DNA from: Fragum whitleyi
Taxonomy: Eukaryota; Mollusca; Bivalvia; Cardiida; Cardiidae
Assembly (NCBI GenBank): GCA_948146395.1
Contig: OX411544.1
Location: 92,367,232-92,431,231, forward strand
DNA length: 64,000 bases
Reading direction: 5' to 3'
Shown one piece after another: positions 476-42,079 of the stretch. The notes below the pieces were generated by a model that saw nothing but the letters and a program-made list of their open reading frames with translations, was not told the DNA's origin and did not search any database. Every line of letters starts with the position of its first letter. Position 1 is the stretch's first letter. The position numbers and the translations under genes are program-made.

Positions 476-719
476 GAAAAAAAATAGAAAGATGTTTCGT
501 CCATTAAAGTAGAAAGAATTGAAGCACATCCAGGTAATTTTTGCGTGACCAGTTTACTAAACTCGTTATTAATGATAAATACTTAATATTTTTCTAAATA
601 TTTAAGTAAAGTTTCAGTTTTTCATTTTCTTTTTTCACGGTTACACGTAGTAGAACTGTCATCTTTTTTCATCTTCGCAATGGAATTGGTTTCGGAAATT
701 TCTTTTCGAATGAGATAGA
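476..719. other. No identifiable feature
   Basis: AT-rich sequence between the microsatellite and the first inverted-repeat element. Nothing recognisable on either strand. Confidence 0.6.
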
Positions 720-5083: not shown

Positions 5084-5187
5084 TGAATAGAGGTGGCCAT
5101 TCACACACACACTTACTTTGAAACGGAGATTTGATCTAGCTAAGATCAACTGTAGCCCCCTTTCAAAATAAAGATTATTTGGGCGAC

Positions 5188-5613: not shown

Positions 5614-5727
5614 TATACTGATCATTCGAGTTTCAGAACATATGCAGAACGCAAAACTTGTCGATCTCAGTCAGTCTGCCTAGATAGACAATAATTTAGA
5701 CGGGATAAAAAATATAGTTTATCTTAC

Positions 5728-10094: not shown

Positions 10095-11016
10095 GATGGT
10101 CCTTAATCGCTCATCTTCGTTTCTTTGACATAATTGATAATTATCAAATTACCTGTAAAAGTCAAAATTTATGATTTGTTGAAGTGTAAACAAGAAAATT
10201 GTGATTAATGCCCCTTTTCCCATGATATGGCATGGATCCTTCCCATTTTCATTAGGGTTCATCCTTGTGACCTTACAAATATTCTGACAAAGTTTCATGA
10301 TTATTGGGCCATATTTGTAGCCTCTAGAGTGTAAACATGAAAAATGTCATTAAGGCCCCTTTTCCTGTGATAGGGCATGGATCATTCCCATTTTAAATAG
10401 GGTTCATTCTTGTTACCTGGGAAACATTCTGACCAAGTTTCATGATGATTGGTCAATATTTGTGGCCTCTAGAGTGTAAACAAGAAAATTGTCTTTTAGG
10501 CCCCTTTTCCCGTGATATGGCATGGATCTTTCCCATTCTCAATAAGGTTCACCCTTGTAACCTGTAGAATATTCTGACAAAGTTTGATGATGATTGGACC
10601 ATATATGTGGCCTCTGGAGTGTAAACAAGAAAATTGTCTTTTAGGCCCCTTTTCCCGTGATATGGCATGGATCCTTCCAATTCTCGATAGGGTTCATCCT
10701 TGTAACCTGGAGAACATTCTGACAAAGTTCCATGATGATTGGACCATATTTGTGGTCTCTACTGTGAAACCAGAAAATTGTCTTTTAGGCCCCTTTTCCC
10801 ATGATATGGAAGAATCTTCCCATTTTCAATAGGGTTTATCCTTGCGACCTGGGAAACATTCTGACCAAGTTTCATGATGATTGGTCAATATTTGTGGCCT
10901 CTAAAGTGTAAACACTTAAATTGTTGACGTCTGACGACGGACGACGGACGACGCACGACGGACATCGAATGATCACAAAAGCTCATCTTGAGCACGATGT
11001 GCTCAGGTGAGCTAAA
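10095..11016 (+). repeat. Tandem-core repeat element, about 146-bp units
   Basis: Starts with AAGAGGACCATGATGGTCC. It then holds about five diverged units of roughly 146 bp, marked by GTGTAAACAAGAAAATTGTC at 10180, 10329, 10473, 10619, 10761 and 10907. It ends with a GACGACGGACG run and TTGAGCACGATGTGCTCAGG-TGAGCTAAAAAA. No protein is encoded. Elements with this architecture (conserved ends, tandem core) are widespread in bivalves. I infer a non-autonomous, possibly Helitron/Helentron-related element. Confidence 0.7.
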
Positions 11017-15034: not shown

Positions 15035-15770
15035 GATTTTTAGCTCAACTGGCCAAAGGCCAGAGAGCCATTGTCATGGCGGTTCGCGTGTGCGCCCGTC
15101 TGTCAGTCTGTCCGTGCATAAACTTTTTCTGTAAACATCTCCTCCCAACCAATGGGCGGATTTTCATGAAACTTGGTAAAATGTTCCTTGGGTGACCTTC
15201 TAAATTTGTTTCAGAAATTTTGATTTGACTCCCAAATAAGCTGCTTGGCAGGGCATGGTATTTTTCCACTGTGAAATCTTTAAAAATCTTCGCCTCCCAA
15301 ACCCTCCGGCCAATTTCAATGAAACTTGGCATGGATGTGACCCTTTACTTAAATTGCTCCAGAAATCTTGATTGGCCCATAAATATGGGCTGGTAGGACG
15401 GGGCTTATTTTAAGCCGAAGTCTTTGAATGACATCTCCTCTTGAACCAATGGGCCAATTTCAATGCAACTTTACCAGAATGTTCCATGGATGACCCTTTT
15501 TAAAAACGGTTCATGAAATTTTGACTGGCCCATAGAAATGGGCGTGGTAGGGTGGGGTTTATTTTGAGCCCGAAATCTTTGAACTACATCTCCTGCTGAA
15601 CCACAGGACCGATTTCAATGTAACTTTACAAGAATGTTCCTTGAGTGACTATTTCCAAAAATTGCTTGCAAAATTTTGACTGTCTCATAAATATGGGCGT
15701 GTCAGGGTGGGGCTTATTTTGAGCCTAGTATCTTTGAAAGACATCTCCTCCTGAACCTAATGTTTAATAA
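15035..15770 (+). repeat. Tandem-core repeat element, GGCCCATAAATATGGGC units
   Basis: Begins TTTTTAGCTCAACTGGCCAA, GTCATGGCGGTTCGCG and GTCTGTCAGTCTGTCCGTGC. About four or five diverged units of 145-165 bp follow, marked by ACATCTCCTCCTGAACCAAT and TTTTGATTGGCCCATAAAT. The element at 39660-40240 is the same family reversed. Non-coding. Confidence 0.7.
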
Positions 15771-20384: not shown

Positions 20385-20850
20385 TGTGCATGTTTGAAGT
20401 AAATCGTATGAAAACTTAAACTCTATTGCGATGACGTTGATATTTTTTTTTTATCAAATTTCCACGAGGACTCCTCTCCCGTGATACATGATGGACCTAG
20501 TCCCTTTTCGAAAGGAACGATCCTTATGGTGATAAGATCACCCTGCACATGTTTTAAGTAAATCATATGAAAACTTTGAACTCTATTGCCATAACAAGGA
20601 TATTCTTTTTCATAATTTCCAAATTTTCATAATGCCCCCCCCCCTTTCAAGTGATACTTGGCGGACCTAACTCATTTTCAAAAGGAACATCTCTTATACA
20701 TGTCATTTAATATTAAAATAATTTTGTGCAAGTTTAAAGCTATACGAATAAAAACTGCTGACTCTTTTGCGATATCAAGAAAGCTTGCGCACACATGGAC
20801 GTACAGATGGAAGGATGATCGAACGGACGGACAAATGTCATCACTGAAAC
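20385..20850 (+). repeat. Tandem-core repeat element, about 165-bp units
   Basis: Two and a half units are marked by CCTGTGCATGTTTGAAGTAA, ATGAAAACTTAAACTCTATT and CGTGATACATGATGGACCTA. It ends with GGACGTACAGATGGAAGGAT and GAACGGACGGACAAATG. Same architecture as 18640, but a different core. Confidence 0.6.
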
Positions 20851-20914
20851 TCTTCATACCTGTACAGTCAGTCAGTAGAGCAAAAGCTCATTACGGGGTT
20901 TATAATATACTGAC

Positions 20915-21003
20915 CAAAACATTCTGGCGTAAAGGAGACGTCATCAATCGCTATATCACCATGGTCCATAAACGTCTTATGGGCTCGAAACTGGACTGTA
21001 AAT
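20915..21003 (-). CDS. MAM domain B, exon 4 (C-terminal end)
   Basis: An 89-nt minus-strand exon. The acceptor is TATTTTGCAG|ATTTACAG and the donor is TTTTG|GTCAGTA. It reads FTVQFRAHKTF, then MDHGDIAIDDVSFTPECF. GDIAIDDVSFTPEC is the hallmark closing motif of MAM domains: the Asp-Asp pair and the fourth conserved cysteine. It starts in phase 2, exactly matching the phase-2 end of the exon at 23675, and finishes in phase 1, as MAM modules usually do. The intron before it holds the 122-bp array. A MITE family G end lies only 12 bp upstream of the acceptor. Very likely real. Confidence 0.88.
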
Positions 21004-21015
21004 CTGCAAAATATG

Positions 21016-21190
21016 GGCCCGTTGTACTAAACTTCTTATGAAAAAAATAATCGTAAGTCAAAATCGAAATCGTACTTGCTGAGTTCATTCATTATTAGCT
21101 TCATCCGTGCAATATTTCACTGGAATCGTCTTCTGAAGACGATTCCAATGAGATGACGCATGGTAGAATTCCATTTATTTTCTAAAGTCA
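21016..21190 (-). mobile_element. MITE family G, partial copy next to an exon
   Basis: Starts at GGGCCCGTTGTACTAAACTT, followed by AAAAAATAATCGTAAGTCAA and GGAATCGTCTTCTGAAGACG, matching 11858-12099 in reverse. The far end is lost after about 21190. Its terminus is 12 bp from the MAM exon boundary. Confidence 0.7.
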
Positions 21191-21748
21191 GTTTTTAAGG
21201 CTATTGAATTATTATCCGCCGGCTCCATATGAATGTAAAAATACCATTGCCAGCTTTTATTTCAATATTATGCGATGCTTGATTTCAATAAATTTTTGTA
21301 ATCGGATGTTGAAACTCTAACCATTGCAGAAAAGTATCAAAGATTTGCTAAATAGAATCGATTTGAGGTTGCAATCCTAAATAATATAACATATTTTTAT
21401 TTATAAGTTAAAATTTGATCGCTAACACAGTTGCAATTTCAATTCAGATAATCATCGGAGATCAGATTGTCTCCGATAAGTTGCAGAGCAATTTGGGATT
21501 AAATAATTTAATGCAAACAAGGCAATCGAAAAATAATTGCAAGTTAGATGTTCAAAGTCACTCCGAACTCAACACAAAATATATTGGAGAAATATGCAAC
21601 CAAATGAAACAAATACTACGAATGCTTACAAATTAATTGCCAAAAGAAAAAAAAATAGACACTTCAAAGAAGAACTGTTTTTGTCTGAATGGCTAGCACC
21701 TTGGTCTTAAATCAAACCGAATAATTTCTGTATTTCTCTTCCGCGAGG
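21191..21748. other. Intron, no other feature
   Basis: AT-rich intronic sequence between MITE family G and the array. The stretch 21680-21748 (GAATGGCTAGCACCTTGGTC, then CCGCGAGGATTCGATCCC) has weak tRNA-like A- and B-box resemblance and may be a decayed SINE. Confidence 0.4.
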
Positions 21749-23674
21749 ATTCGATCCCAGGCCACGAAGGGTTACTCTCAGCTATGATACGCTAACAGAA
21801 TTAAAGTCTGTAATAATATAATTGTTGGTATCTAACCTTCTATAACCAGGTGGATTATCAACTTCCTGGTATTCGATCCCAGGCCACGAAGGGTTACTCT
21901 CAGCTATGATACGCTAACAGAATTAAAGTCTGTAATAATATAATTGTTGGTATCTAACCTTCTATAACCAGGTGGATAATCAACTTCCTGGTATTCGATC
22001 CCAGGCCACGAAGGGTTACTCTCAGCTATGATACGCTAACAGAATTAAAGTCTGTAATAATATAATTGTTGGTATCTAACCTTCTATAACCAGGTGGATT
22101 ATCAACTTCCTGGTATTCGATCCCAGGCCACGAAGGGTTACTCTCAGCTATTATACGCTAACAGAATTAAAGTCTGTAATAATATAATTGTTGGTATCTA
22201 ACCTTCTATAACCAGGTGGATTATCAACTTCCTGGTATTCGATCCCGCGCCACGAAGAGTTACTCTCAGCTATGATACGCTAACAGAATTAAAGTCTGTA
22301 ATAATATAATTGTTGGTATCTAACCTTCTATAACCAGGTGGATTATCAACTTCCTGGTATTCGGTCCCAGGCCACGAAGGGTTACTCTCAGCTATGATAC
22401 GCTAACAGAATTAAAGTCTGTAATAATATAATTGTTGGTATCTAACCATCTATAACCAGGTGGATTATCAACTTCCTGGTATTGGATCCCAGGCCACGAA
22501 GGGTTACTCTCAGCTATGATACGCTAACAGAATTAAAGTCTGTAATAATATAATTGTTGGTATCTAACCTTCTATAACCAGGTGGATTATCAACTTCCTG
22601 GTATTCGATCCCAGGCCACGAAGGGTTACTCTCAGCTATGATACGCTAACAGAATTAAAGTCTGTAATAATATAATTGTTGGTATCTAACCTTCTATAAC
22701 AAGGTGGATTATCAACTTCCTGGTATTCGATCCCAGGCCACGAAGGGTTACTCTCACCTATGATACGCTAACAGAATTAAAGTCTGTAGTAATGTAATTG
22801 TTGGTATCTAACCTTCTATAAACAGGTGGATTATCAACTTCCTGGTATTCGATCCCAGGCCACGAAGGGTTACTCTCACCTATGATACGCTAACAGAATT
22901 AAAGTCTGTAATAATATAATTGTTGGTATCTAACCTTCTATAACCAGGTGGATTATCAACTTCCTGGTATTCGATCCCAGGCCACGAAGGGTTACTCTCA
23001 GCTATGATACGCTAACAGAATTAAAGTCTGTAATAATATAATTGTTGGTATCTAACCTTCTATAACCAGGTGGATTATCAACTTCCTGGTATTCGATCCC
23101 AGGCCACGAAGGGTTACTCTCAGCTATGATACGCTAACAGAATTAAAGTCTGTAATAATATAATTGTTGGTATCTAACCTTCTATAACCAGGTGGATTAT
23201 CAACTTCCTGGTATTCGATCCCAGGCCACGAAGGGTTACTCTCAGCTATTATACGCTAACAGAATTAAAGTCTGTAATAATATTATTGTTGGTATCTAAC
23301 CTTCTATAACCAGGTGGATTATCAACTTCCTGGTATTCGATCCCAGGCCACGAAGGGTTACTCTCAGCTATGATACGCTAACAGAATTAAAGTCTGTAAT
23401 AACATAATTGTTGGTATCTAACCTTCTATAACCAGGTGGATTATCAACTTCCTTGTATTCGATCCCAGGCCACGAAGGGTTACTCTCACCTATGATACGC
23501 TAACAGAATTAAAGTCTGTAGTAATATAATTGTTGGTATCTAACCTTCTATAACCAGGTGGAATATCAACTTCCTGGTATTCGATCCCAGGCCATGAAGA
23601 GTTACTCTCAGCTATGATACGCTAACAGAATTAAAGTCTATAATAATATAATATATAATATATTGGTATCTTAC
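21749..23674 (-). repeat. 122-bp tandem array seeded from an exon end and its 5' splice site
   Basis: Sixteen units, phased by GCCACGAAGG at 21761 and every 122 bp to 23591. All are near-identical except the last. Each monomer consists, on the minus strand, of about 35 nt copied from the 3' end of the MAM exon at 23675-23862 (CAGGAAGTTGATAATCCACC, then GGTTATAGAAG) plus about 87 nt of the adjoining intron. The authentic junction is GAAG|GTAAGATACC. The 15 repeated copies all read GAAG|GTTAGATACC. The repeats have stops in all minus-strand frames after the intronic ACAG, so they are not extra coding exons. Confidence 0.95.
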
Positions 23675-23862
23675 CTTCTATAACCCAGTGGAATATCAAC
23701 TTCCTGATATTTCCAAACGTTTCCCTGCTCGTTTTCTCTCCTCCAAAGTACTCTGGGTACAGGATTCCGAGCTACAGGATTGTTAGTGGGGTGACACCAG
23801 TTGACCACTTCTACGGCTAGGTAACCAATACGGCGACCAAACATATGATAGAAAAAGCGAAC
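23675..23862 (-). CDS. MAM domain B, exon 3
   Basis: A 188-nt minus-strand exon. The acceptor is GAAAAATTCAG|GTTCGC and the donor is AGAAG|GTAAGA. It opens VRFFYHMFGRRIGYLAVEVV and closes LWRRENEQGNVWKYQEVDIP. The first block is the classic MAM core (FxYHMxGxxIGxLxVxV). The second matches LWxxxGxQGxxWxxxxVxI. Between them is a somewhat long loop with an extra cysteine (NWCHPTNNPVARNPVPRV). It starts in phase 0 and joins the preceding exon to give CK|VRFFYHM. It ends in phase 2. Its last 35 nt and donor site are the seed of the 122-bp array just downstream. Part of a secreted or membrane-bound adhesion-type protein. Confidence 0.93.
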
Positions 23863-24921
23863 CTGAATTTTTCAGAAATGAATAATTAAAAATATCGCAG
23901 GTCAACAGTATCGCAGGTCCGTTGACCTGCGTAAAAGCAAATGGATCCATATCAGTTACAACTTAATTCGTCATCAAAATAAGTTGTTATGAAAATCAAA
24001 CACAACACTATAGCTACGACATTAATTTCTTCCATAATAGAAAAGGTTGAAAATGAGATGAAACATTGGAGGTCAAATTTTCTTTGTGGATTAAGAGAAT
24101 GATTGGTCTATGATTTTTTATGATCGCCCTGTCCTGCGTTGAGGATGATACTTGATGCGAACTGTCTGCTTATCATATCCCACTTTGCGCATACTCTTGT
24201 ATGCAAATCGAGTATAATTTGCAAACGTTAAACATTTTTTTTTCATCCTGAACCCAACGCTGGTCTGTTTATTATGTGCCCCGTCACGCGAGAGGCCATG
24301 GTAGAAAAACAAGTATTTTTAAACTATTTCGGATCCAACAAAAAGTCATAAGATCAAATTTTGAAAATAAAACAGTTATGTAAGATAACCATTCTCAATT
24401 CAGAACATTGTCTTATTTTTATCATTATTATTATTTGTTCCCCATTTTCCTACAAAGCCCGAAATGGCTGACCTGGTGGGATATATTTTGCACTTCAAAA
24501 AAGTGTTTATGGTAATGCTCTACTATAACAGTTTCTATTCCAAATTCGCTAACTTGATCTAAGATATGAATATAAAATGTTCCTTTATCAATGCCAACTA
24601 AGACAAATTGGATTAAATATTATGTTACGTATTTACTTTCAAGCAATTTTAAAATATTTTGATATCACGGAGCACCATCCGAGCAACTTCAATGTAAAAT
24701 GGTTTACAATATCACAAAATTATTCCGAAGGGAACAGAATAAACATTTAACAAAACACTCAGTATTTCAATATTTTGGTAAAAAATGCCTTTTTCAAGTA
24801 TTTTAACACTACTACATAATAATTACTACATAAAATGGCTTATATTGGATTTAAGTGTCGTTGCAAAGTGTTCTAAATTGTACTCCCCTCCCTCGATGCG
24901 ATCATATGACTGTGGACTTAC
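23863..24921. other. Intron with small repeats
   Basis: Contains a short inverted pair (CGCAGGTCAACAGT, CGCAGGTCCGTTGACCTGCG) near 23897-23932. A TTTGCAAA-family palindrome lies at about 24140-24260 with a family B-like CCCCGTCACGCGAGAGG end at 24281. A family C half-element (ATTATTCCGAAGGGAACAGA, AATAAACATTTAACAAAACA) lies at 24710-24800. No exon recognised. Confidence 0.55.
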
Positions 24922-25022
24922 CTTACAATTAGGCAGAACTTCATTGCTCTTGAAAACTCGACTGGTAAGAACAGCATCCTGTAGACGCTTACCTTCACTA
25001 GATTCTAAATACATGTAGTAAC
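24922..25022 (-). CDS. MAM domain B, exon 2
   Basis: A 101-nt minus-strand exon. The acceptor is TTCCTTTCCCAG|GTTACTAC and the donor is TGTAAG|GTAAGT, which matches the consensus exactly. Phase 1 in, phase 0 out. Joined to exon 1 it reads (G)YYMYLESSEGKRLQDAVLTS, then RVFKSNEVLPNCK. GYYMYLESS is the signature second block of MAM domains and LPNCK carries the third conserved cysteine. The join to exon 3 gives NCK|VRFFYHM without a gap. Confidence 0.93.
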
Positions 25023-25761
25023 CTGGGAAAGGAATAACAGTTTTCTCTATAATAGCATTATCAGTTATTTTTTAAAATAACCTTCCTGAGATAATTCCAA
25101 AATTTTCCGACATGGACAAAGTAAAAACTTGGTTATGCATTAAGTCTGCTTTAAGCGCTTTGAATGGTGTTTTAAACGTTTCCAACGTCCTGAAGGTCTG
25201 CTATTCGATTTCTTAGCTCAGAGATGTGTAAATATGGATTTTCGGTTCCTAGACAAGTAACGTGAGATCTTCTTCTTGTCCAGAATCAAAATTAATGAAC
25301 ACGAGCACAAAAAGTAGGATTGGTAGATTTTCAGAAAACATCGTTTTTTATGAAAAAATGCTGGAATCCAGCATTTTCTGGGTAGAAAAAGTGATTTACA
25401 CTCTTTGATACAAACATTTAATCCATCGATCTATTTAGTATCATTACAAGATCTGTTCTGGTTTTTACTTGTCCACGGACAAGTAGCCTCGAAAAATGTA
25501 CTTGTCCGCAGGTAGAAAAGCACATGTCTAACAAGTTTAGCATCAGAACCCCAAACCCTGTTATGTAAAAGTACTCGAAACGCCACGCACGTGCTAACGA
25601 ATATTGTGAAAGGTTGTGCTTATGTGGGTATCTTTTTTGAAATTCTGTGTAAATCTCTGTATTTTTCAAAAGCAAACAAAGCAAGTTGTTTTTTCTTTAT
25701 CGTACTAGAATCGGTATTTAAATAAAATACTTAATGTATCTAGACGAGCATGGTGGTATAA
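25023..25761. other. Intron, no recognised feature
   Basis: AT-rich; contains a short inverted pair at 25340-25380 (AAAAAATGCTGGAATCCAGC, then CCAGCATTTT). No exon recognised. Confidence 0.5.
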
Positions 25762-25837
25762 CAAGGGGTTAGCGCAACACTATTGTTAGTGCCTATAAAT
25801 ATATAGGCACTTACAATAGTGTTGCGCTGACCCCTTG
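25762..25837. repeat. Strong 36-bp-arm hairpin
   Basis: CAAGGGGTTAGCGCAACACT, extending to GTGCCTATA, pairs with TATAGGCAC, extending to GTTGCGCTGACCCCTTG. Only two or three mismatches, with a tiny AT loop. Lies within the MAM B intron 1. Confidence 0.9.
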
Positions 25838-25864
25838 ATAAAAGATAATCTAATGTTAAATTTT

Positions 25865-25975: not shown

Positions 25976-26037
25976 TTTGTACAACTGGGGCTGGCGTCAT
26001 ATCCACACTTAAGACAACTTTTGCCAAAAGAAATTAC

Positions 26038-26196
26038 CTGACGAGTTATGGAGTGTGTGATCAAAGGTCGGCCCGGTACCAGCGGTTGGTGTTGACCCAT
26101 TATGGCGAGTCCAGTTTAAGGGCGCGTTGTACTTGAATACTTGCCATCCGCACGAACTCTTCTCGAAGTTACATACCATGTGGTCTGGAAGATGAC
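26038..26196 (-). CDS. MAM domain B, exon 1
   Basis: A 159-nt minus-strand exon, phase 1 at both ends. The acceptor is TCATTTTAG|GTCATC and the donor is CGTCAG|GTAATT. It reads (G)HLPDHMVCNFEKSSCGWQVF, then NWTRHNGSTPTAGTGPTFDH and TLHNSSG. This is the canonical start of a MAM domain: CNFEKSSCGW has the first two cysteines, followed by the FxWxRxxGxTxxxxTGPxxDH motif. Three N-glycosylation sequons (NWT, NGS, NSS) support an extracellular location. With exons 2-4 it gives a complete domain of about 179 residues, slightly longer than typical. Confidence 0.93.
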
Positions 26197-26837
26197 CTAA
26201 AATGAACAAACGTTTATTTTGAATGATTTCATTCTTTATGATTCCTTTGATGTTTTTTTATTCCATTGGGCTGACAAATTGGTTTTATTTCCCAATGAAA
26301 ACAATTTTGAGTACACCCTTACGTATTTTGATTGCTTTCGCAAAAGGTAGCCCCATGATAAATATTTGACGAAAATTCACATTTGTGCGTCTTAATATCT
26401 TCGGCGATTCTACGGAATATACATCGGGAATAATACGGGCGCAGCCATGAAAGCGCGTCATTTCCGACGAAGGTACATATTACGTCAAAATTATCAACCA
26501 TTCTGCTAACGATGATGTTACATAAAATGAAATCAACAAAGGAATAAAAGTTGGCATATTATATTGTGATAACAGAAGGCAGTGTTTTACTGCGTATAAT
26601 CATCGTGTTATGCCAAATAGATCTTTACAGACGATCGGAAAGAATTAACACAATGTGATTTTCTTCAAACGTATTAAATAAACGAAAGAACCATCAGAAG
26701 CCGAATTACCTGAAAATGAGCCAAAATAACTACATTTATGTCCGAGGTACTTTCCAGTTCATGGAAATGTCCGAACGTTATTCCGAATGGCACTCACCCA
26801 TGCATATAGACACGTACGAATTTTAAGCACTTTTACA
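26197..26837. other. Intron, no clear feature
   Basis: AT-rich intronic sequence with a repeat block at 26690-26775 (GAAGCCGAATTACCTGAAAA, TACTTTCCAGTTCATGGAAA) related to those at 4600 and 34215. Confidence 0.5.
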
Positions 26838-27537: not shown

Positions 27538-27959
27538 TACAGTTAACAACATCGTGAAATTGACACGATGAATGATTTGGGAATGATTTAGGAATGAAAT
27601 TCAATGAGTGTGTTGAGCGAGTTTTGAGTAAATTAAATGGGAGGTAATACTTTATTGATATATATTGATTACCTCCATTTAATTACCTCCCTTTATTAAA
27701 AAAAAAATCAAGTTTTATACATGGCTTTCTATTTCTTCAAGAACCTATGAGACGCTATTAACTTGAATTGTGTCAGTGTAATCGCGATTTTTCTCAATCA
27801 AATTTATTTTGAATGACTTTGGTTCTTCTATATTTTTCAATAGGTTTGGGCGTTTTTTAATGGCTTGAGTGAGTGGAATTAATGAATGGGGCGCTGAGTG
27901 AGCGGTTTAGAATGATTTTAACTGAGGTGAATGTCAATTTCACGATTTTATTAACTGTA
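27538..27959 (+). mobile_element. MITE family A, near-complete copy
   Basis: Both TIRs are well preserved (TACAGTTAACAACATCGTGA and the inverse ending TTAACTGTA). The central TTTTGTTC/GAACAAAA pair has been lost and replaced by a repeated ATTACCTCC block. It ends 70 bp downstream of the LDLa exon. Confidence 0.85.
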
Positions 27960-28029
27960 TCAGCCTAGGAGCCAGGGTAGCAAAATCTAGGTACATGTAC
28001 CAAAAGTTGTATTACAGTGTTTCTCTTAC

Positions 28030-28161
28030 CACAAAGAGTGTCGGACTCATCCCTCCCATTATCACAATCATTGTGTAGATTACAAATCTTGTCTTGACTG
28101 ATACAGTGTAGACTATCACACATAAAGCTTTCTGTGGCAGAACACCGATGAGTCTTGTTCA
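28030..28161 (-). CDS. LDL-receptor class A domain exon
   Basis: A 132-nt minus-strand exon, phase 1 at both ends. The acceptor is CTACTTTCAG|TGAACAAG and the donor is TTTGTG|GTAAGAG. It reads (V)NKTHRCSATESFMCDSLHC, then ISQDKICNLHNDCDNGRDES and DTLC. All six cysteines of an LDLa module are present. The acidic calcium-binding loop (N-D-C-D-N-G-R-D-E) is recognisable though not consensus. MAM-LDLa alternation with symmetrical phase-1 exons is typical of MAM and LDLa domain proteins, common in molluscs. It links the MAM A end (59257) to MAM B (26196). Confidence 0.93.
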
Positions 28162-28978
28162 CTGAAAGTAGACATGAAATCAAACTTCAAGCCCGCTGTT
28201 AAATCGATCAAATTGGATTCTTCGTTGAAATATGAAAATGCCACCAGAGTCGTATAGCGAGCCGTACGTAAATTCATACGCTGTTGCTTTCAAGTTTCGA
28301 CGATAGTTAAAATCGCGCGCGTGTGTGTATGGAGAGGGGGGGGGGGTATTTTGGGCAAAATTAAGAACTACGAAGATACAGAATTAATTTTTCATAGAGT
28401 AGAATGTAGCAATTTTTAAACTAAACTACTTTGGTTAGAAATGACAACTTATTAAGAGCAAAATATATTTGATATATGGTATAGTATATTCAATATGTGA
28501 TAATGTAGGACGGGATTACGCTAGTAAATAGCGATCACATATTGAAAAAAAAATGCGCGTGAACAAAAATATTGGGGATAATTTGCTATAAATGTTTGAA
28601 CCATCAAAACTTTTTCATTTTGTTATTTCAACATATTCGTGTTTTTTTTTTTTTTTTTTTTTTTTTTCTTTTCTTTTCTTTTTTTTTTCAGTAGTCTGCA
28701 CGTTTTATTCCTTTATTTAAGTGTATATTTGTTTATTTTTTCATGTTTCTATTTTAATCTGTGATAAACATAGATTTGCTCGTTGATTAATGACATCGTT
28801 GTATTACGAATATTTCACTTGAAGGTAGATTGAACATTCTAGATTCAGAAAATAAGCACATTGCGAAAAGTTTCGACCCTAGTCAGTCTGCGCAAATCGC
28901 GCAGTCTGACTAGTGTCGACACTTTACGCACTATCCTGATGGTCCCTTTTTCGCGTGATGATTCAAATACATATACAC
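28162..28978. other. Intron with homopolymer tracts and a MITE family B fragment
   Basis: Contains GCGCGCGTGTGTGT followed by a run of about 11 G at 28335-28346. A T-homopolymer/CTTTT tract lies at about 28641-28690. At 28826-28968 is the right half of family B (ATTCTAGATTCAGAAAATAA, CCTAGTCAGTCTGCGC). Confidence 0.6.
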
Positions 28979-29340
28979 ACATGTATACGTGTGTTCGTGA
29001 TTTATAGTTTTTTATGTGAGCTGTATCTGCAAATATAGGCCAGTAAAACAACAACAACAATAACAACAACAACAAATAATTATCCCTTCTCATCCTGTTC
29101 ACGACGTATAACTGCTGTACACATAGTTTTGCAAATAGTATAGACTAAGATCAGCCTGCACACACGTGCAGTCTAATCTTATCACACAGTGTCTGTTTCT
29201 ATATATAAAAAAGGTGAAAAAAATTTAGTCAGACTTGGTGAATGTCCCAAATATTTGTTAGTTGGTGGAAATCCGTGACCAACACTGGGTGAAATGTCCC
29301 AACTACATGTATTTTTGTTCGTTTGATTTTGTTTGAATAT

Positions 29341-29599
29341 GTGACCCGTCACGCGAAAGGGGACCATCTAGGGAATCTGTAAAACGAATATTTGAAAAAG
29401 AGATTTGGTCTAGCATAGGTCAACCATAGGTCGCATTTCCAAAATTATTTGACTGGAAGGCAGAATGATCTTTATAGAATCAGAAAATAAGCACATCGCG
29501 AAAAGTTTCGATCCTAGTCAGTCTGCGCAATACGCGCAGTCTGACTATGGTCGACTCTTTACGCACTATCAAAATGTCCCTTTTCGTGTGACGGGTCAC
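29341..29599 (+). mobile_element. MITE family B, reference copy
   Basis: Best-preserved member. Ends GTGACCCGTCACGCGAAAGG and the inverse TTTTCGTGTGACGGGTCAC, with an inner palindrome CAGTCTGCGC-AATAC-GCGCAGTCTG and the block AAAAGTTTCGATCCTAGTCA. About 259 bp, non-coding. The duplicate is at 43114-43372. Confidence 0.88.
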
Positions 29600-31140
29600 G
29601 TATATTAAAAAGAATTTAACAGGAGAAGGATTAAGCTGCATCTGCAAATATAGGCCAGTAAAGACAAACAACATTATGAGGGCTCCCAGAAGTATACTGG
29701 GCTGTCAGGAATATTACACCGATTCCATTAAGAGCGCCTCCAAATAAAACCTCATAAATTCCTCGATATTCGTCGGGGAACTCAAAGTTACTGAATTAAT
29801 CGTAACAACATAATTGTTTTCGCACCAATTACGTCTCACTCTAACTCTTTACATCATTTCAAATAAAATTCATCAAATCACATCGAGAAAACTGTTATAC
29901 CGTCGAAATTAAAATCACAACAGGATACAAAATTTACGTCAAGAAGTCTCTATATAACGTCACGTGTTAAATAAAGACTTGGTGTCGTAAGCTTTGCAAC
30001 CTGCATTGATTAGAAAGACGTTCGAGACAACCATATATATACTCAACAACAAAACTAACGTATCAATAAAATTTTAAGATATAACTATATTAATCTTAAG
30101 TTTGGAATAATGAATATATTAAAATAAATATTAAACAATTATTGTGTTGTGAAAAAACGGATGAAACCGAATGCATTGGGCACCATTGAAGATTGTGCAA
30201 ACGCACAGAGACGACAACCTCCAAAATCAAAATTTCGAAATCAGAGATCATTTTCATTACACAGTAAAAGTAGATAACGCATGAGTTCGTATGCGTTATT
30301 CCTCTTGAAGGGAACGTCTGACACATTGATTTCGGTATATTACCAAGATTAACTCCAAAAATTGCTATCCATTCGTTCTGCATGTTGCCCCAGTTTGGCA
30401 CAAAACCTTGGATTTTCGTACTTTTGGACTCCCATTGCCAGCTCGTTTAGAGATGTGTCTGATCGGTGACAGAGAAGGCCTTAGCATTTCTTTAACATGC
30501 AATGCACGAAGAAAATACATAATAAGATAAGATGAATGAGCCATTATATTAACTTGACTACAGGAGGTTACCCATCGATACTAGATTCAGATATCTCATC
30601 TTAGTGGTTCAACACCACTAGTCAACAAAAACTTCAAAACAATAACCTGTAAAGAATTTCTGATCAAAACACATTACAATGTAGCCCCCATATCCTGTAA
30701 GTCTCAAGAACATGAAGTTGTTATAATTAACGTTTTAACCTTGCAATGGCTAAGTTATAATCCGCCATAGCACACGGAAGAGTCATTTATTCAAATCACA
30801 ATGTGAATCAGTTCAGCATGACAATGGCACGATGACGTACCTCGATACAATTTAACATTTGATTAACATCTGCAAATTCTTCGTAATTGGGTGAATCTGA
30901 AATCGTTTGTTTTGTAGTTTCTGGGCTACACAAATGAATTTACAAAGGGACGTCATTTATGCAGGGAGTCCAATTACTCAGCGATGCCCGATAACTGTCC
31001 TTGCAGTGCTTTGATTTGTATGATTCATAATCTTGAAGTGATTTCTTGTCACTTAGCTTATTGCCATTGAAATAGAGGCAATGTTCATTCTGAAGCAAAT
31101 CGCTTGGTGAGAACTTACAAACTCCTAATTAGAAAATAAA
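29600..31140. other. Intronic, no identified gene
   Basis: AT-rich. The segment 29629-29660 repeats the GCATCTGCAAATATAGGCCA block seen at 29025 and 42795. A minus-strand 101-codon frame (30096-30401) is preserved in both copies, but only because the duplication is recent; no domain seen. A TCAAAGCACTGCAAGGACAG block (minus) lies at about 31003-31020. Confidence 0.5.
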
Positions 31141-31290
31141 ACTTGAACATTTAATAAAAACACTCGGCATTTCTATATTTCGGCAAAAAGTGCCTTTTTC
31201 GAGAAAAATGAAACAAATATTTATTTCAAGAATTGAAATACCGAGTATTTTTTATTAAATGTTAATTATATTCCCTTCGAAATAATTTTG
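31141..31290. mobile_element. Palindromic element family C
   Basis: About 150-bp inverted repeat. AACATTTAATAAAAACACTC and ATTTCGGCAAAAAGTGCC pair loosely with GAAATACCGAGTATTTTTTA and TTAAATGTTAATTATATTCC. Relatives are at 3765 and 24710, and the duplicate is at 44914-45063. Confidence 0.6.
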
Positions 31291-31321
31291 CCCCGACGGC
31301 GGCACTCATTCTTTCCAGCTA

Positions 31322-31490
31322 TTTGAATATCACCAATGACCTATGTAAGATAGCAGCTGGAGGCTAGGAAAGGATGTGATGGTAATACTGGTGATAAAAA
31401 TACCAGGAATCATTGTTAGGTGCTGCAGCCGCCACGATATAATTGAAAAAAAAGTAGAAAGCTGAGTAAAACTCCATTCAATCGACCAAT
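31322..31490 (+). mobile_element. SINE, molluscan 3'-domain type
   Basis: GCTGGAGGCTAGGAAAGG, AAAATACCAGGAATCATTG, CCGCCACGATATAATTGAAA and a degenerate GAAAGCTGAGTAAAACTCC tail. Duplicate at 45095-45263. Confidence 0.65.
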
Positions 31491-31824
31491 TGAAATAATT
31501 TTATGATAATGTAAAACTTGAAAGTTTTCCCGTTCTCACTTTAAAATGAAAATGAATAGTGGGTTCATTTTTTTTCGAGAAAAATCGTCTGATTTGAAGG
31601 AAAAATATGGAAATGGGGACAATACTTGAGACATGCAATTTCATCTTCTTCCGAAATAATGTCTCTGGTATGAAACATGAAAGGATCGTAAAATGTAGGG
31701 TTAGCATAAACGATTTACTTCCTTGCGCAGATAACATGCCCTCGCTTACGTTATATGTACAAAAATATAAAGAAATAAAATATACTTCGGAAGAAGAGCT
31801 CGCTAAATATATAAAACATACTTA

Positions 31825-32100
31825 GTGTTTTGAATAAAAAAAATATCTGACGGGGTTGGGAGAATTGATAATTGTCGAGGCTCTGCCGAGACAATTATCA
31901 ATCCTCACAACCGAGTGAAATTGTATTATATTTATCTTATAACCTCCATTTGTCTTGTTTTCGTTGATGTCTCTAACTGAAATGCAAGTTTCTTAAAATA
32001 ACCTCATTATATCATTGTTCTAAAAGAAACTTTGTGATATCATAAAAAATATCATAAGGAATGTTATCACGCATATTATATTATATTTGTATAGTTATAA
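31825..32100 (-). mobile_element. Fold-back element family H
   Basis: Has a near-perfect hairpin ATTGATAATTGTC-(GAGGCTCTGCCGA)-GACAATTATCAAT at 31864-31901, then CTTGTTTTCGTTGATGTCTC, as in 19440-19741 reversed. Duplicate at 45598-45873. Confidence 0.65.
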
Positions 32101-32259
32101 GATAAAATATACCATACTTGGTTTAACCCTTTTTATTTTACATCGATTGGGAAACAAGTTATTACAACTTAGATAAATCCTTCTCTATTCTGCTTCCTGG
32201 AAAATTCACCAGTAAACTCGCGCCGATTGTGTGGGCCAATAAAAGAACCAAGATCGATA

Positions 32260-32330
32260 GCCGCTCCTGGGAATCGAACTCAGGACCTTTGAGTCTAGAG
32301 GCCAAGGCTCTACCTCTAAACCACGGACAC
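32260..32330 (-). pseudogene. tRNA-like SINE head or tRNA pseudogene
   Basis: On the minus strand, GTCCGTGGTTTAGAGGTAGA and GC give a good A-box. CTCAAAGGTCCTGAGTTCGA and TTCCCAGGA give a good B-box and T-arm. The anticodon loop is over-long and the acceptor stem does not close, so it is not a working tRNA. Duplicate at 46033-46103. Confidence 0.6.
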
Positions 32331-33104
32331 AACACTATATATCTACTATATATCTACTAAAATATACTATAAATGGGTAAACAAAATCCCGTAACAACAC
32401 TTATACTAAGCTGTAGTTGCGAGCTTTTGGTTGCCTAACGTCGATATTTTGTTTAACATTTTTGTCCTAGATCAAATCGAGAACGACGTTCTGTCACTTC
32501 AAATAATGTTACGTATCTGAAATCCCCTTATTCCTCGAGTTGTCTTGTTTGTTTGTATCTGTCTTGGAATAGCGAAAAATAAAGTCCGGAGTTTCTCCTA
32601 ACCTATCTTTTTTACCAGCCATGTGATCAGAATGACAAAACGGTGCTCCCTGTTTGCAAAATATACCCTACTTTGCACGCATTTTTTCTTTGATCAACAT
32701 GTTGATATTGAAAATGTTTTAAGCGTTTTATTTCCTGGTATCACATCTCATGGAATTGGCAAAACATTGTCGGGAGCTACTATATGAGTCAGTGCGTGAC
32801 ATTTCCAACAATTTGAAATGTATGTGAGGTGCAAGCATTGAGTAGCGTAAACAGTCACATACTGTAAATATAAAGTTACCTGATGGTCTACAGATACTTT
32901 GAGACCTTACCTATCGCATAGTGAAGACTCTGAGCAGACTGTGCGGATGCACAGGCTGGTCAGAGTCGTTGTTTGCGCATACTTAGAATTGTTAGAAATC
33001 TCATGCACAGGATCATATAGAAATATGCACTGGTGATAATCACGGTTTCGTAAAGCCCTCAACCTGAACCTTTAAATTTAAACCTTCAACCGGAGAAGCT
33101 CTTC
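32331..33104. other. Intronic, no gene identified
   Basis: Includes a TTTGCAAA-family fragment near 32650-32700 and an inverted-repeat stretch GACTCTGAGCAGACTGTGCG with CACAGGCTGGTCAGAGTC at 32928-32970. No coding exon recognised. Confidence 0.5.
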
Positions 33105-33250
33105 CCTTTAAGGAAGCAGTTGGAGGCTAGGAAAGGGTGTGGTGGTTGTACTTGTGAGAGAAATACCAGGAAGCCATTGTTAGGTGCTCCAGCTGCCGCG
33201 ATATAACTGAAAAAATTTTGAAAGCGGCGTTAAACTCCATTTAATCAATT
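33105..33250 (+). mobile_element. SINE, molluscan 3'-domain type
   Basis: TTGGAGGCTAGGAAAGGGTG, GAGAGAAATACCAGGAAGCC, GCTGCCGCGATATAACTGAA and AAAGCGGCGTTAAACTCCA. Duplicate at 46878-47023. A bare tail fragment is at about 33855-33895. Confidence 0.7.
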
Positions 33251-33544
33251 AACCCTTTGAGACAGACATATAACAGAACTGCAGTTTGAGATTTATTGGG
33301 CTGGAGTCCAATAAATGGATAATTGCCTGGTATATGGTTTGCGTGTTTCCTATGCCAATTGGGAGCGTGAACATGTCTCTTCTGACAGTGGTGTTGCAGA
33401 CAAACTACTTGTATGATACAAGGAAACAATTTTTCGTGTAACCCGTCCACCGAAGATGGTAATACATAAATAGATAAAATGTTAGTAAACTCGAAAAGAA
33501 AAATGGTCAATAGAACCCCCAAAAACAAATCCCTTCACACAAAA

Positions 33545-33775
33545 AAACCATCTGGGAAGTTTTTAATACAATAAACATTTGTAAAATATATTAAGTAAAA
33601 CAGAGGTCAACCAGAAGCCGCATTCCGAAAATGTTAATTGGGAAGGAAGAATGTTCATTCTAGAGCCAGAAAAATACTCTTAGCGAACTATTCGACCCAA
33701 TTCAGTCTTCGAAGCCAACGAAGGCTGACGGCAGACTGACAACGGTCGATACTTTGTGCATTTCCTGGAGATTCT
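33545..33775 (+). mobile_element. MITE family B, diverged copy
   Basis: AACCATCTGGGAAGTTTTTA, GAGGTCAACCAGAAGCCGCA, ATTCTAGAGCCAGAAAAATA and CGACCCAATTCAGTCTTCG follow the family B order. Ends are lost. Duplicate at 47318-47546. A short family A right end follows at 33780-33835. Confidence 0.55.
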
Positions 33776-34378
33776 GAATTGAGCGATTCAGAATGGGTTT
33801 TATTGAGATGACTGTCATTTTATTTAGTTTACATCTTTAGTGATATGACTAAAATCGTTGAAAGCGGCGTAAAAACCAATTCGATTAAAAGTGAAAGTCC
33901 GATTTACTCGTGACTTTTTCATAGATAAAATACGCAAATCTATTAAAGCACGTACCTGAATACCAGTTCCAACAATTTGCAGACATGCTATTCCATGGTG
34001 GTATGCGGGAGTTTAAAATTTAAGGTTTTAAAGTCCATACACGATCAAAATAATTGATGACAATTTTGGATGAAACTTCAAGATCACTCATGCACGTATA
34101 TTTGTCTTATTCTTCAGTATTGGCAATATTATTGATCATTATTGATTATTTAAATTAAAGGTTATCAATGTATTGATTTAGTATTGTTGTAAACGATACT
34201 GGTCCATTCGGGAAATAGCTCGTACTTTTCCATAAACTGGAAGGTGCCTCGGACGAAAGTGCAGTTATCTTGTGTCATTATTTTAGGAAATTCGGCTTCC
34301 GGTGGAACTTTGATTAATGGGCTACGCTTGAAAAAAATATTCCTTGAATGCCTTCCTATAGTCTATGGAGATCTTACA

Positions 34379-34445
34379 GGCATATTACAATTTGATGACA
34401 AAACGCAGTAAAGCACTGCGCTTTGTTATCAAATTATGATATGCC
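34379..34445. repeat. Hairpin upstream of the LINE
   Basis: GGCATATTACAATTTGATGA and CAAAACGCAG pair with CTGCGCTTTG and TTATCAAATTATGATATGCC around a short loop. Duplicate at about 48149-48215. Confidence 0.8.
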
Positions 34446-34531
34446 CTGGTTTTATCTTTCGTTGATTTTTGATTTTCTCCACGTCATCTTCATGTTTGTG
34501 ACGCCATGAACTTAATATTGTTAATGGTCGC

Positions 34532-37168
34532 TTGGAAAAGGGAGATTATACATATCATGGATTATATAGGGGTAACTCTGTAAATAGTACTGTTGACTAT
34601 TTAATAACAAATTATTTGAATTTTGACAGGTTGAGTAATTTTAATGTTAATTCATTGACAGAATTTAGCGATCACAGCTCAATTTCATTTTCTCTGTCAT
34701 ATGAATACTCCTATTTACATTGTCTTGATAAAGTAACGTACTTTGATAAAATAGTTTGGAAAAGTGAAATAAAAGAAGACTTGTCTTCTGTTTTAGAAGA
34801 CAAGACTCATTTGTTTCATAATTTAATAGATCGCCTAGTAACAAATGAAATAGATATAAATGACTGTATTTCTCAGTTTTCAAATCTAATATATGACATT
34901 TCTTTTTCATTATGTGGGAAAACGGTAAAAAGTGGTATACATAAAAGTCGAAAATCAAAATCTCCATGGTTTGATAACGATTGCAAAATGGCAAAAAAAT
35001 CATTTTTCAATGCTAAGCGAAAATTTCTTTCAGATAAAACCCATTCAAATAGAGATGAGTTTATGAAAGATAGGTCAGACTTTAATAGAGTGAAACGGAA
35101 AGCTAAAAATAAATATTATCATAAAGAAAATATTAACCTTTCAAACTTGGCTAAGAGCAGTCCTAGACAATTTTGGGACAGAATTCGCCAATCTAAGCAG
35201 TCTTCTGAAAATGATACAAACTTATCAGCAGAAGATTTTGCTCAGTATTTTGCAAATATTTCCAATAACCAAGAACCTAATTTATCAAATACTTTTATAA
35301 ATGGTGATACAGACAATTTGTCTTTTATCGAATCATTAGATATGAACATTAGCACCGAAGAGATTCAAAAGGCAATTAGCTCAATGAATAGACATAAAAG
35401 TTCCGATATTGAAGGCAACGTTGCAGATTTTTTTATCGATTGTAAGGATTTTATAGCCCCCTTTCTCACATCGATTTTTAATCACATTTATAATACGGGT
35501 AATTATCCTGTTTCATGGACAAAAGGTGCAATAGTACCTCTTTTTAAAAAAGGTGATAAGAATAACCCTGAATGTTACAGGGGCATTACACTTATCAACA
35601 TTTCAGCAAAAATCTTCTCGCTCGTTTTAAGAAACAGATTGAATTCATGGTGCGAAAACAACCGTGTTTTTTATGAAAATCAATTCAGATTTCGAAGCAA
35701 ACATTCAACATCCGATGCCATCTTTATTCTTCACACTATAATTCAAAATATCTTATCAAAGAACAATAAACTATGGTGTATTTTCATTGATTATAAGAGA
35801 GCATTCGATACTGTGGACAGAGATTCTCTGTTTTATAAACTAATAGAACTAGGCGTAAGTTGCAAATTTATCACTATTATAAAAGCAATGTACAAAAGTG
35901 TTCAATCTTGTGAAAAGTTATCAAATAATTCATCTCTTTCGGATTTTTTCAACGTGAGTATCGGTTTAAAACAAGGTGAACCTCTCTCGCCCATCTTGTT
36001 TCTTCTCTTCATTAATGATATAACTGAAAATTTAGACTTAAACTCAATGAGTGACTCAGACTTGGAATTATTGTCAAAATATTTAATCTTATTTGCGGAT
36101 GATATAGTTCTGTTTACCACCAGCCAAGAAAGCCTCCAAGCCCAAATAGATAGTCTATATCAGTATTCGTGTAAATGGGGTCTTGAAATAAATATTGAGA
36201 AAACCAAAGTTTGTGTTTTTGAAAAAAGAAAGTCTCTGAAAGATCGCAATATTTTAATCAATGGTAAAATTGTTGAATTTGTCGATCAGTTTTCATATTT
36301 AGGACTCGTTTTCAACTATACAGGATCGTTTAATCTAGCGGTGAAAACGTTGAATGATCAAGCTTCAAGAGCATACAATAGTCTTCTGAAGATTTTTGAT
36401 ACTAATTCGTTTGATATTAAAACAAAGATTACATTATTTGATTCGATGGTACAACCAATTTTGCTCTACGGAGCGGAAGTGTGGGGTATATATAACTTCA
36501 CAACTGTAGACAATTTACATTTGAGATTTTTAAGATATCTGTTGGGAGTTAAAAAGCAGACTCCAATTTGTGCTATATTTGGAGAATTCGGAAGATTGCC
36601 CTTTTCAGTAAAGAGCAAACAAAGAGCACTCAAGGTTTGGTGTAAATCTATGTCAGGTAATCATCCAAATCTATACGATGCATATCTTAATCAATGTAAC
36701 CTTAATTCTAATGTGAGTTGGGCCAAAAGGGTTAATTCTATAATCGACCATCTTGGCTTAACTAATATCAGAATGAACTTCAACCCTAGTGTCAATAATT
36801 CTGAAATTTTGAAGAAGAGATTAAGTGATCAGTATATACAGAGCTGGCTTTCTTCGATCAACAACTCTAGTAAACTTACTTATTATTGTAAATTCAAAAA
36901 GGAATTTATATACGAAAAATATCTTGATAATATCACAAATAACAAATGGTTAAAACTATATGCATGCTTTAGGTTGAGCTCTCACAGTTTAGAGATAGAA
37001 ACTGGTAGATTTACTGGTATTTATAGAGAAAATAGGCACTGCAAAGTTTGTTCTTCAAATGTTATCGAATCGGAATTTCATTTCTTGCTTTGTTGTAATA
37101 AATATGAAAATGCAAGACGAAAATATTTTAGAAATATTTCCTGGCCAAATATTAATACTTTTTTCTAA
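34532..37168 (+). CDS. Reverse transcriptase ORF of a LINE, copy 1
   Basis: An 878-codon ORF. Residues about 10-52 are the C-terminal edge of the endonuclease (NSTVDYLITN, SDHSSI). The reverse transcriptase spans about 330-605. It has PLFKKGDKNNPECYRGITL, motif A FIDYKRAFD with catalytic D420, motif B GLKQGEPLSP (478-487) and motif C FADD with D523/D524. A C-terminal Cys-His motif follows (C837, C840, H850, C854). Two positions deviate from the usual family pattern: QFRFR has Arg386 where Gly is common, and motif B has Glu483 where Cys is common. The ORF ends early at a T-run frameshift near 37158-37166, and the expected C-terminal tail continues in another frame to 37274. The start is only the first Met after truncation, not a native start. 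Differs from copy 2 at residue 702 (Val) and 831 (Tyr). Confidence 0.9.
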   Translation: MEKGDYTYHGLYRGNSVNSTVDYLITNYLNFDRLSNFNVNSLTEFSDHSSISFSLSYEYSYLHCLDKVTYFDKIVWKSEIKEDLSSVLEDKTHLFHNLIDRLVTNEIDINDCISQFSNLIYDISFSLCGKTVKSGIHKSRKSKSPWFDNDCKMAKKSFFNAKRKFLSDKTHSNRDEFMKDRSDFNRVKRKAKNKYYHKENINLSNLAKSSPRQFWDRIRQSKQSSENDTNLSAEDFAQYFANISNNQEPNLSNTFINGDTDNLSFIESLDMNISTEEIQKAISSMNRHKSSDIEGNVADFFIDCKDFIAPFLTSIFNHIYNTGNYPVSWTKGAIVPLFKKGDKNNPECYRGITLINISAKIFSLVLRNRLNSWCENNRVFYENQFRFRSKHSTSDAIFILHTIIQNILSKNNKLWCIFIDYKRAFDTVDRDSLFYKLIELGVSCKFITIIKAMYKSVQSCEKLSNNSSLSDFFNVSIGLKQGEPLSPILFLLFINDITENLDLNSMSDSDLELLSKYLILFADDIVLFTTSQESLQAQIDSLYQYSCKWGLEINIEKTKVCVFEKRKSLKDRNILINGKIVEFVDQFSYLGLVFNYTGSFNLAVKTLNDQASRAYNSLLKIFDTNSFDIKTKITLFDSMVQPILLYGAEVWGIYNFTTVDNLHLRFLRYLLGVKKQTPICAIFGEFGRLPFSVKSKQRALKVWCKSMSGNHPNLYDAYLNQCNLNSNVSWAKRVNSIIDHLGLTNIRMNFNPSVNNSEILKKRLSDQYIQSWLSSINNSSKLTYYCKFKKEFIYEKYLDNITNNKWLKLYACFRLSSHSLEIETGRFTGIYRENRHCKVCSSNVIESEFHFLLCCNKYENARRKYFRNISWPNINTFF

Positions 37169-37274
37169 ATTAATGTCCTCATCAAAAAAGTCTATACTGA
37201 CTGCCATCTGCAAATATCTTTCTGAAAGTTACACTTTACGTGATGAAGCCTTGAAAGATAAGGCTGTTCCATAA
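37165..37274 (+). pseudogene. Out-of-frame C-terminal tail of the LINE protein
   Basis: After the T-run the +1 frame reads KLMSSSKKSILTAICKYLSE, then SYTLRDEALKDKAVP-stop. This has the composition of the usual final helix of such LINE proteins. The same frameshift is present in the duplicate (to 51045), so it predates the duplication. Confidence 0.6.
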
Positions 37275-37447
37275 ACTTAATTAATCAATTAATTAGTGAT
37301 GTTTTTTCTCGGATGAATTATCATCTGAAATATGCATGTATAATGTATGTATGTATTTGTCTTTGCCATATTCTGTTTGTTTTGTAAATGGCCATAGACA
37401 TATATATGTCGAATTTTGCCATTAAAGAATTGAATTGAATTGAATTG

Positions 37448-37923
37448 GTAATCCACGTGCGAAACGACGCGCTTTCAAGTCTGCGACCTCATTATTCCCT
37501 TTGTCCAATCTCATTAAAATCGGATCCACCATATTGCAAACGCTACGCCCCTGCGAAGCGGTAGCATAGTGGTTTCGTAAAGATGATTATAATTAGATTG
37601 CCTTTTGTCTATTTCGTAGAATCGGCGAGGGTTCCCGACTAGATAATGGTCGTTTACGGACCAACGATTCCTTTATTCCCAATATATGAATTGGATGACG
37701 TCGTGGGGCGTCTTGAACGTTTTGGGGTACTCATTAAATGAAAATTTGTGTTTATCTCTTTAGGCAATATTACGAGAGTATCCACTTTAAGCGAGAAGCC
37801 AATTTACAAAAGTCAAACTCTTTCAAACAGGAACAAGTCCACAAATATGCGTTTGTTTTCATAATACGTCATTTTATCGCTGTCCGAGTGTATGTAGTGT
37901 GGTGATTTGTCAGTCGTGTATCA
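37448..37923. other. Intronic, no gene identified
   Basis: Slightly GC-richer stretch after the LINE, with TACGCCCCTGCGAAGCGGTA near 37549. No repeat family recognised. Confidence 0.45.
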
Positions 37924-38358
37924 TACAGTAAGTTTCATCGTAAAATTGGTTTTCATCTCAATCAAAACAGTTCTAAATCGCTCACTCAGCGCTCCATTTA
38001 TTCATTGTAAACACTCTCTCAAACCATTGAAAAGCGCTCCAAATTCACCAAAAATGACAAAATCAACGACTGCATTCAAAATACATATAGCTAGATAAAA
38101 TCGTGATTTTCATTGACATAATTGAAATTTTGAGTGTCTGATTGGTTTGTGAAGAAATAGAAAGCTATTCATAAAAGTTGTGTGCACATTTTATTAAAGG
38201 GAAGTAATAAATACATTGTATTGCTGTTTTTGTTCATCCTGAACAAAATTAGCGATATTGGATTACTACCCTTTAATTTCACTCAAAACTCATCTCATTC
38301 ATTCAATTTCATTCCAAAATCATTCAACTTGTCATTTTCATAATGATGTTAAGCTGTA
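37924..38358 (-). mobile_element. MITE family A (reverse), copy in duplication copy 1
   Basis: Starts TACAGTAAGTTTCATCGTAA and ends TGTCATTTTCATAATGATGT-TAAGCTGTA. The central TTTTTGTTCATCCTGAACAA pair is intact. Duplicate at 51695-52129. Confidence 0.85.
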
Positions 38359-42048: not shown

Positions 42049-42079
42049 TAAGTTGGAATTGCTCCGCATTCCAACTTAA

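What the first reader, a model, noticed from the sequence alone, without database searches (positions are those of the whole stretch)
21749..23862. Tandem array made from a coding exon's 3' end and its 5' splice site
Each 122-bp monomer contains the last ~35 nt of the neighbouring MAM exon, the exon-intron junction, and the next ~87 nt of intron. The real junction reads GAAG|GTAAGA. All 15 amplified copies read GAAG|GTTAGA, a uniform change at donor position +3. Thus 15 decoy 5' splice sites lie in the intron directly downstream of the true site. Either the founder copy was already weakened or selection tolerated only weakened copies. A satellite born from a splice junction is unusual, and it could affect splice choice or intron retention. 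Copy number may vary between individuals.
Basis: seen in the sequence. Interest (0 to 1): 0.85.

Follow-up and report, generated by a model that had tools for sequence, protein, structure and literature searches.

The report
Intron repeat copied from exon end
An intron of an animal gene contains 15 near-identical tandem copies of the preceding exon's tail with its splice signal, all carrying one inherited change predicted to weaken that signal, which is most simply a duplicated, harmless passenger rather than a device.

Summary
On the minus strand a MAM domain is encoded by four exons (joined: Pfam MAM, 117.9 bits). The third exon (23862..23675) ends at donor AAG|GTAAGA. Its last 36 nt, the junction and 86 nt of intron (94 in the resident copy) recur head to tail as 15 further 122-nt copies, 1830 of 2671 intron bases. 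All 15 read GTTAGA; 14 of 15 read GAAG|GTTAGA, one GATG|GTTAGA. The +3 change is one of 7 differences shared by all copies, so it is one inherited event, not 15; neither its place (P 0.21-0.42, by how widely the donor is drawn) nor its later constancy (P 0.35-0.40) departs from chance. The breakpoints share AAT, which suits tandem duplication at short homology, then amplification. The decoys score lower than the true site and pair less well with U1, yet only 3.2% of other GTs in the window score as high. Use of any decoy gives a stop right after the exon (15 of 15). Most likely a near-neutral intronic minisatellite; a regulatory role is possible but unsupported. No RNA, other individual or related genome could be examined; the genome search did not complete (nine calls).

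The parts
26038..26196 (-). MAM exon A (159 nt), donor CAG|GTAATT
   Evidence: Pfam MAM profile 1-46 for the open frame 26009..26257; splice sites and frame
24922..25022 (-). MAM exon B (101 nt), donor AAG|GTAAGT
   Evidence: Pfam MAM profile 42-75, weak alone, E 0.0057; splice sites and frame
23675..23862 (-). MAM exon C (188 nt); its last 36 nt are the exon part of the repeat
   Evidence: Pfam MAM profile 75-123, 25.3 bits, just under the 26.4 cut-off alone; joined MAM 117.9 bits
23669..23674 (-). true 5' splice site of exon C, GTAAGA
   Evidence: reading frame continues exactly into exon D; PWM 10.41, U1 pairing -9.5 kcal/mol
23581..23710 (-). resident copy 0 of the repeat, 130 nt, spans the exon C/intron junction
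   Evidence: alignment to the monomer consensus
21749..23580 (-). 15 tandem 122-nt copies (23580..21751), each 36 nt exon end + junction + 86 nt intron; 21749-21750 are the AT with which a next unit would begin and which the flank shares
   Evidence: TRF, monomer table, flank comparison
21831..23544 (-). stretch that holds the 15 decoy donors GTTAGA; first intron base at 23544, 23422, 23300, 23178, 23056, 22934, 22812, 22690, 22568, 22446, 22324, 22202, 22080, 21958, 21836
20915..21003 (-). MAM exon D (89 nt), acceptor TTTTGCAG|ATTT, donor TTG|GTCAGT
   Evidence: Pfam MAM profile 128-157, weak alone, E 0.033; splice sites and frame
21004..23674 (-). host intron, 2671 nt, phase 2, 1830 nt of it array

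Best explanation
A stretch running from the last 36 nt of MAM exon C to about 90 nt into the following intron was duplicated in tandem between two sites that share AAT. The new copy, lying in the intron and free of coding constraint, drifted from the resident one (7 shared substitutions, including donor +3 A to T, and an 8-nt length difference; which of the two changed at each site is not known). That diverged copy then multiplied to 15 by unequal exchange or slippage, recently enough that copies differ pairwise by only 2.2%. The resident copy stays apart because the exon and its donor are needed. In RNA the true donor is expected to win: it pairs better with U1 and is the one defined across the 188-nt exon. 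Any use of a decoy would keep the intron's first bases, which put a TAA directly after the exon, so the product would be a truncated MAM domain or decayed mRNA. Shown: anatomy, frame, divergence pattern, decoy weakness by model. Inferred: order of events, splicing outcome, near-neutrality.
For: Four exons join without a stop into one MAM domain, 117.9 bits over profile 1-157 of 158, and a PDB alignment runs through the exon C/D join, so the source is the exon, not the repeat. Distal flank reads ATCGAAT|CC, exon reads GGAAAT|AT, unit junction reads ATCGAAT|ACC: 3 shared bases. Copies differ pairwise by 2.7 of 122 sites on average; copy 0 differs from all 15 at 7 sites. The exon-proximal copy 1 alone of 15 keeps the exon's T at unit position 18, and copy 11 alone keeps T at 103. 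No copy of the unit elsewhere in the window at E <= 0.01. Four other arrays with units of 145-250 bp in the same 64 kb. True donor PWM 10.41 and -9.5 kcal/mol; decoys 6.14 and -5.6 (14 of 15), 4.04 and -4.1 (1 of 15) (matrix and U1 letters recalled). All 15 decoys give a stop at codon 64 of the frame from exon C, directly after the exon.
Against: Decoys are not negligible: 199 of 6207 other GTs in the window score as high (3.2%), and they score above the likely real donor of exon D (6.14 against 5.00), though exon D pairs better with U1 (-7.6 against -5.6). The array holds such a donor every 122 nt, against one per 603 nt elsewhere. Order of events rests on one sequence. No transcript, population or species data; the organism is not identified.
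Confidence: 0.8

Rival explanations
1. Selection acted: a full-strength duplicated donor downstream would have been used and truncated the protein, so only a lineage in which the duplicate's donor had been weakened could expand to 15 copies.
For: All 15 of 15 decoys carry the weaker +3 T; a decoy used at all gives an immediate stop.
Against: One founder event explains the uniformity; 1 of 7 fixed changes falling in the donor is not unusual (0.21-0.42), and the donor is no more constant among copies than chance gives (P 0.35-0.40). With one event the test has little power.
Confidence: 0.15
2. The array is a splicing regulator: each unit offers an acceptor-like ACAG and a weak donor 93 nt apart, a chain of pseudo-exons with in-frame stops, so that copy number tunes how much productive mRNA the gene gives.
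For: ACAG|ACT in 15 of 15 copies and GTTAGA in 15 of 15; the fixed difference at unit position 63 makes this CAG where the resident copy has TAG; the consensus pseudo-exon inserted between C and D brings in-frame stops.
Against: Pyrimidine content before that AG is only 0.58; no sign of selection on the donor; no RNA evidence.
Confidence: 0.06
3. Assembly artefact: copies were multiplied or misjoined by the assembler.
For: The same window holds a 10.5-kb direct duplication at 99.2% identity, which may be a second haplotype left in, so the assembly is not above doubt; 4 of 15 copies are identical to the consensus.
Against: 11 of 15 copies carry their own or shared variants; on both sides the array passes into intron and into an exon in frame. 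The exact copy number remains unproven.
Confidence: 0.07
4. The repeat came with a mobile element (for example a tRNA-like short element; the unit holds a box-B-like TTCGATCCC).
For: A motif resemblance only (recalled, from no call).
Against: No whole tRNA in the window (which would miss a decayed tRNA-derived head); in 20800..24000 only two Rfam matches up to E 5, both far under their cut-offs and of bacterial or plastid families; no copy of the unit elsewhere in the window; the unit contains coding sequence of this exon.
Confidence: 0.03

Closest known systems
Intronic minisatellites / VNTRs, e.g. 27-bp unit in intron 3 of abalone TSSK1-like (PMC6905558, passages seen)
   Same: tandem units within an intron of a protein-coding gene; there the number varies between individuals
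   Different: the passages seen do not say that the unit contains coding exon or a splice site; here it contains 36 nt of coding exon and the 5' splice site
Repeated 150-bp block in intron 1 of Sparus aurata myostatin-2 (PMC3045353, part 1 of 2 of the Discussion and passages seen)
   Same: a duplicated intronic block with a predicted extra splice site (an acceptor present in the two-repeat allele and not in the one-repeat allele)
   Different: one or two blocks and a predicted acceptor; here 15 copies and a duplicated donor that comes with the exon edge
Intron-1 repeat arrays of earthworm metallothionein genes (PMC12783039, passages seen)
   Same: minisatellite arrays in the intron of an invertebrate gene
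   Different: the passages seen describe no exon-derived unit in these arrays (they mention separate duplications of a fourth exon that do not reach the transcript)
Tandem exon duplication and splice-site duplication in intron-creation models (recalled, no paper read)
   Same: duplication of splice signals next to the parent
   Different: only the exon's 3' end and its donor are copied, without the exon's own 3' splice site

Membership tests
Intronic minisatellite | head-to-tail units of roughly 10-150 bp (range recalled) | tested here: met
   period 122, 16.0 copies, 97% matches
Intronic minisatellite | lies in an intron | tested here: met
   copies 1-15 lie between exon C and exon D of one MAM domain, frame continuous; copy 0 overlaps exon C
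Intronic minisatellite | copy number varies between individuals | not testable with these tools
   one assembly only
Tandem exon duplication | whole exon with both splice sites duplicated | tested here: not met
   only the last 36 of 188 nt of exon C are copied
Functional alternative 5' splice sites | junction reads at the extra donors | not testable with these tools
   no RNA data held
MAM domain gene | Pfam MAM profile over its length | tested here: met
   117.9 bits, cut-off 26.4, profile 1-157 of 158 for the joined exons
tRNA-derived mobile element | tRNA-like head or known RNA family | tested here: inconclusive
   ARAGORN finds 0 tRNAs and Rfam nothing above cut-off, but a decayed head would be missed

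The most novel reading that the evidence does not exclude
The array is an evolvable splicing rheostat: 15 weak decoy donors, each behind an acceptor-like CAG, draw U1 and occasionally form stop-bearing pseudo-exons, so that copy number sets the output of the MAM gene and can vary between individuals.
Probability: 0.06. Interest if true: 0.75.

Novelty: new variant of a known kind. Interest (0 to 1): 0.36.

Why it matters
It is a clean natural case of a splice donor amplified next to its parent, with the parental sequence, both breakpoints and the whole series of copies readable in one place. It would let competition between one strong donor and many weaker downstream copies be read from ordinary RNA-seq, and copy-number variants, if they exist, would act as a natural titration. 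As it stands it suggests how a minisatellite can be born over an exon edge without breaking the reading frame.

Tried and rejected
Selection for weak donors: tested by counting fixed and segregating differences; not supported, though one event gives little power. Mobile-element origin: no whole tRNA, no Rfam family above cut-off (two sub-threshold matches, E 3.7 and 4.5), no other copy in the window. Homologous proteins: exon C alone had no candidate; the joined MAM gave 6 candidates sharing words, none at E <= 0.001, so the residues at the exon end could not be polarised with relatives. PDB relatives (8 distinct sequences: four of enteropeptidase, one SR-C-like scavenger receptor, one MDGA1, two neuropilin-1) confirm a MAM domain only. 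Literature: ten answered searches listed no paper whose title or abstract start tells of a minisatellite with a unit spanning a coding exon-intron junction; passages of four papers were looked at and part of one Discussion. One search listed 15 of 129 papers. This covers only open-licence full texts and those terms, so it is no proof of absence.

Full report
Setting. The window is 64000 bases, 34.7% G+C, no N. It looks like an animal genome (split genes, MAM and LDL-receptor class A domains; inference, organism not identified) and holds a reverse transcriptase frame (Pfam RVT_1, 119.9 bits). On the minus strand four open stretches match successive parts of the Pfam MAM profile: 26009..26257 (1-46), 24826..25071 (42-75), 23671..23871 (75-123) and 20868..21026 (128-157). 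Alone, only the first passes Pfam's cut-off; the third is just under it (25.3 against 26.4) and the second and fourth are weak (E 0.0057 and 0.033). Joined at consensus splice sites (exons 26196..26038, 25022..24922, 23862..23675, 21003..20915) they read 178 residues without a stop; with one more residue in front, inferred from the phase, the 179-residue domain scores 117.9 bits over profile 1-157 of 158. It matches 8 of 177635 distinct PDB sequences at E <= 0.001, four of them enteropeptidase, and the alignments shown run through the exon C/D join. An LDL-receptor class A frame lies upstream at 27965..28186; that it belongs to the same gene is inferred. So the donor at 23674 and the acceptor ending at 21004 are well supported without RNA.

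The array. TRF reports 21749..23711, period 122, 16.0 copies. In gene orientation copy 0 (130 nt) begins 36 nt before the end of exon C and runs 94 nt into the intron; 15 copies of exactly 122 nt follow. They occupy 1830 of the 2671 intron bases. Four of 15 copies equal the consensus; the other 11 carry one to four departures each, 21 in all in 17 columns. Variants shared by distant copies (position 92 in copies 1, 6, 7; 60 in 1, 7; 87 in 3, 12) suggest exchange among units.

Origin. The unit junction reads ATCGAAT|ACCAGG. The intact distal flank reads ATCGAAT|CCTCGC and the exon reads GGAAAT|ATCAGG. Both sites share AAT, as expected of a tandem duplication at short homology (inference; three shared bases can also be chance). 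The exon is the source: its end is part of a domain found in other proteins.

The +3 change. Outside the 8-nt gap copy 0 differs from all 15 copies at 7 sites: four where copies have C for T, one T for G, one T for A (donor +3) and one G for A. If 7 changes fall at random in 122 sites, at least one hits donor positions +3..+6 with probability 0.21, the 6-nt donor with 0.30, the 9-nt site with 0.42. The six donor columns are invariant among copies, but with 17 of 122 columns variable this has probability 0.40 (0.35 by a per-base rate). The uniform change therefore counts once and needs no selection, though one event cannot exclude it.

Strength. With a recalled metazoan matrix the true donor scores 10.41, decoys 6.14 (14 of 15) and 4.04 (1 of 15); pairing with recalled U1 letters is -9.5, -5.6 and -4.1 kcal/mol. 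The other donors of the MAM exons: A 8.54 and -8.2, B 11.91 and -10.6, D 5.00 and -7.6. Of 6207 other GTs in the window (both strands, 20001-24000 left out; the donors of exons A and B are among them) 199 reach the decoy score and 10 the true one. The decoys are thus weak relative to their parent but not dead by score; by the matrix they exceed exon D's donor.

Consequences if used. Exon C ends in phase 2. Retained intron reads AGG TAA at once, so retention or use of any of the 15 decoys stops at codon 64 of the frame counted from exon C (15 of 15). Each unit also holds ACAG|ACT (15 of 15), in the consensus 93 nt before the next decoy; inclusion of the consensus pseudo-exon brings in-frame stops. 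Its pyrimidine tract is poor (0.58).

Verdict. A real, neatly readable minisatellite born over an exon edge; most probably a tolerated passenger in its intron. The claim that selection demanded weak donors is possible but unsupported. How unusual it is, is softened by four other arrays with units of 145-250 bp within the same 64 kb; none of them overlaps the four MAM exons, and I did not look for other exons near them. I could not reach the rest of the genome, RNA, individuals or relatives.

Papers: PMC3045353, part 1 of 2 of the Discussion and passages; PMC6905558, PMC12783039 and PMC2883569, passages; all others only as search listings.

Noticed in passing
28975..39479 and 42757..53250; 42078..42761 and 53249..53931: A 10.5-kb direct duplication at 99.2% identity whose first copy includes the reverse transcriptase frame, with a further 684-bp pair at 99.1%; fits a tandem segmental duplication with a 2.6-kb length difference, or a second haplotype left in the assembly.
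   Followed up: partly
25759..25840: Inverted repeat, 39-nt arms, 92% complementary, 4 nt between, in the MAM intron between exons A and B; may be a small hairpin mobile element (the label is a guess).
   Followed up: no
10183..10914, 15360..15757, 55905..56575, 61118..61612: Four other tandem arrays with units of 145, 155, 165 and 250 bp.
   Followed up: no
719..1146, 1624..2060, 2466..2887, 5185..5616, 27538..27960, 37924..38359, 40775..41211, 51694..52129, 60590..61041: A dispersed repeat of about 430-450 bp in at least nine places (two of them inside the 10.5-kb duplication) and both orientations, 66-84% identical in the pairs listed (list cut at 40 rows).
   Followed up: no
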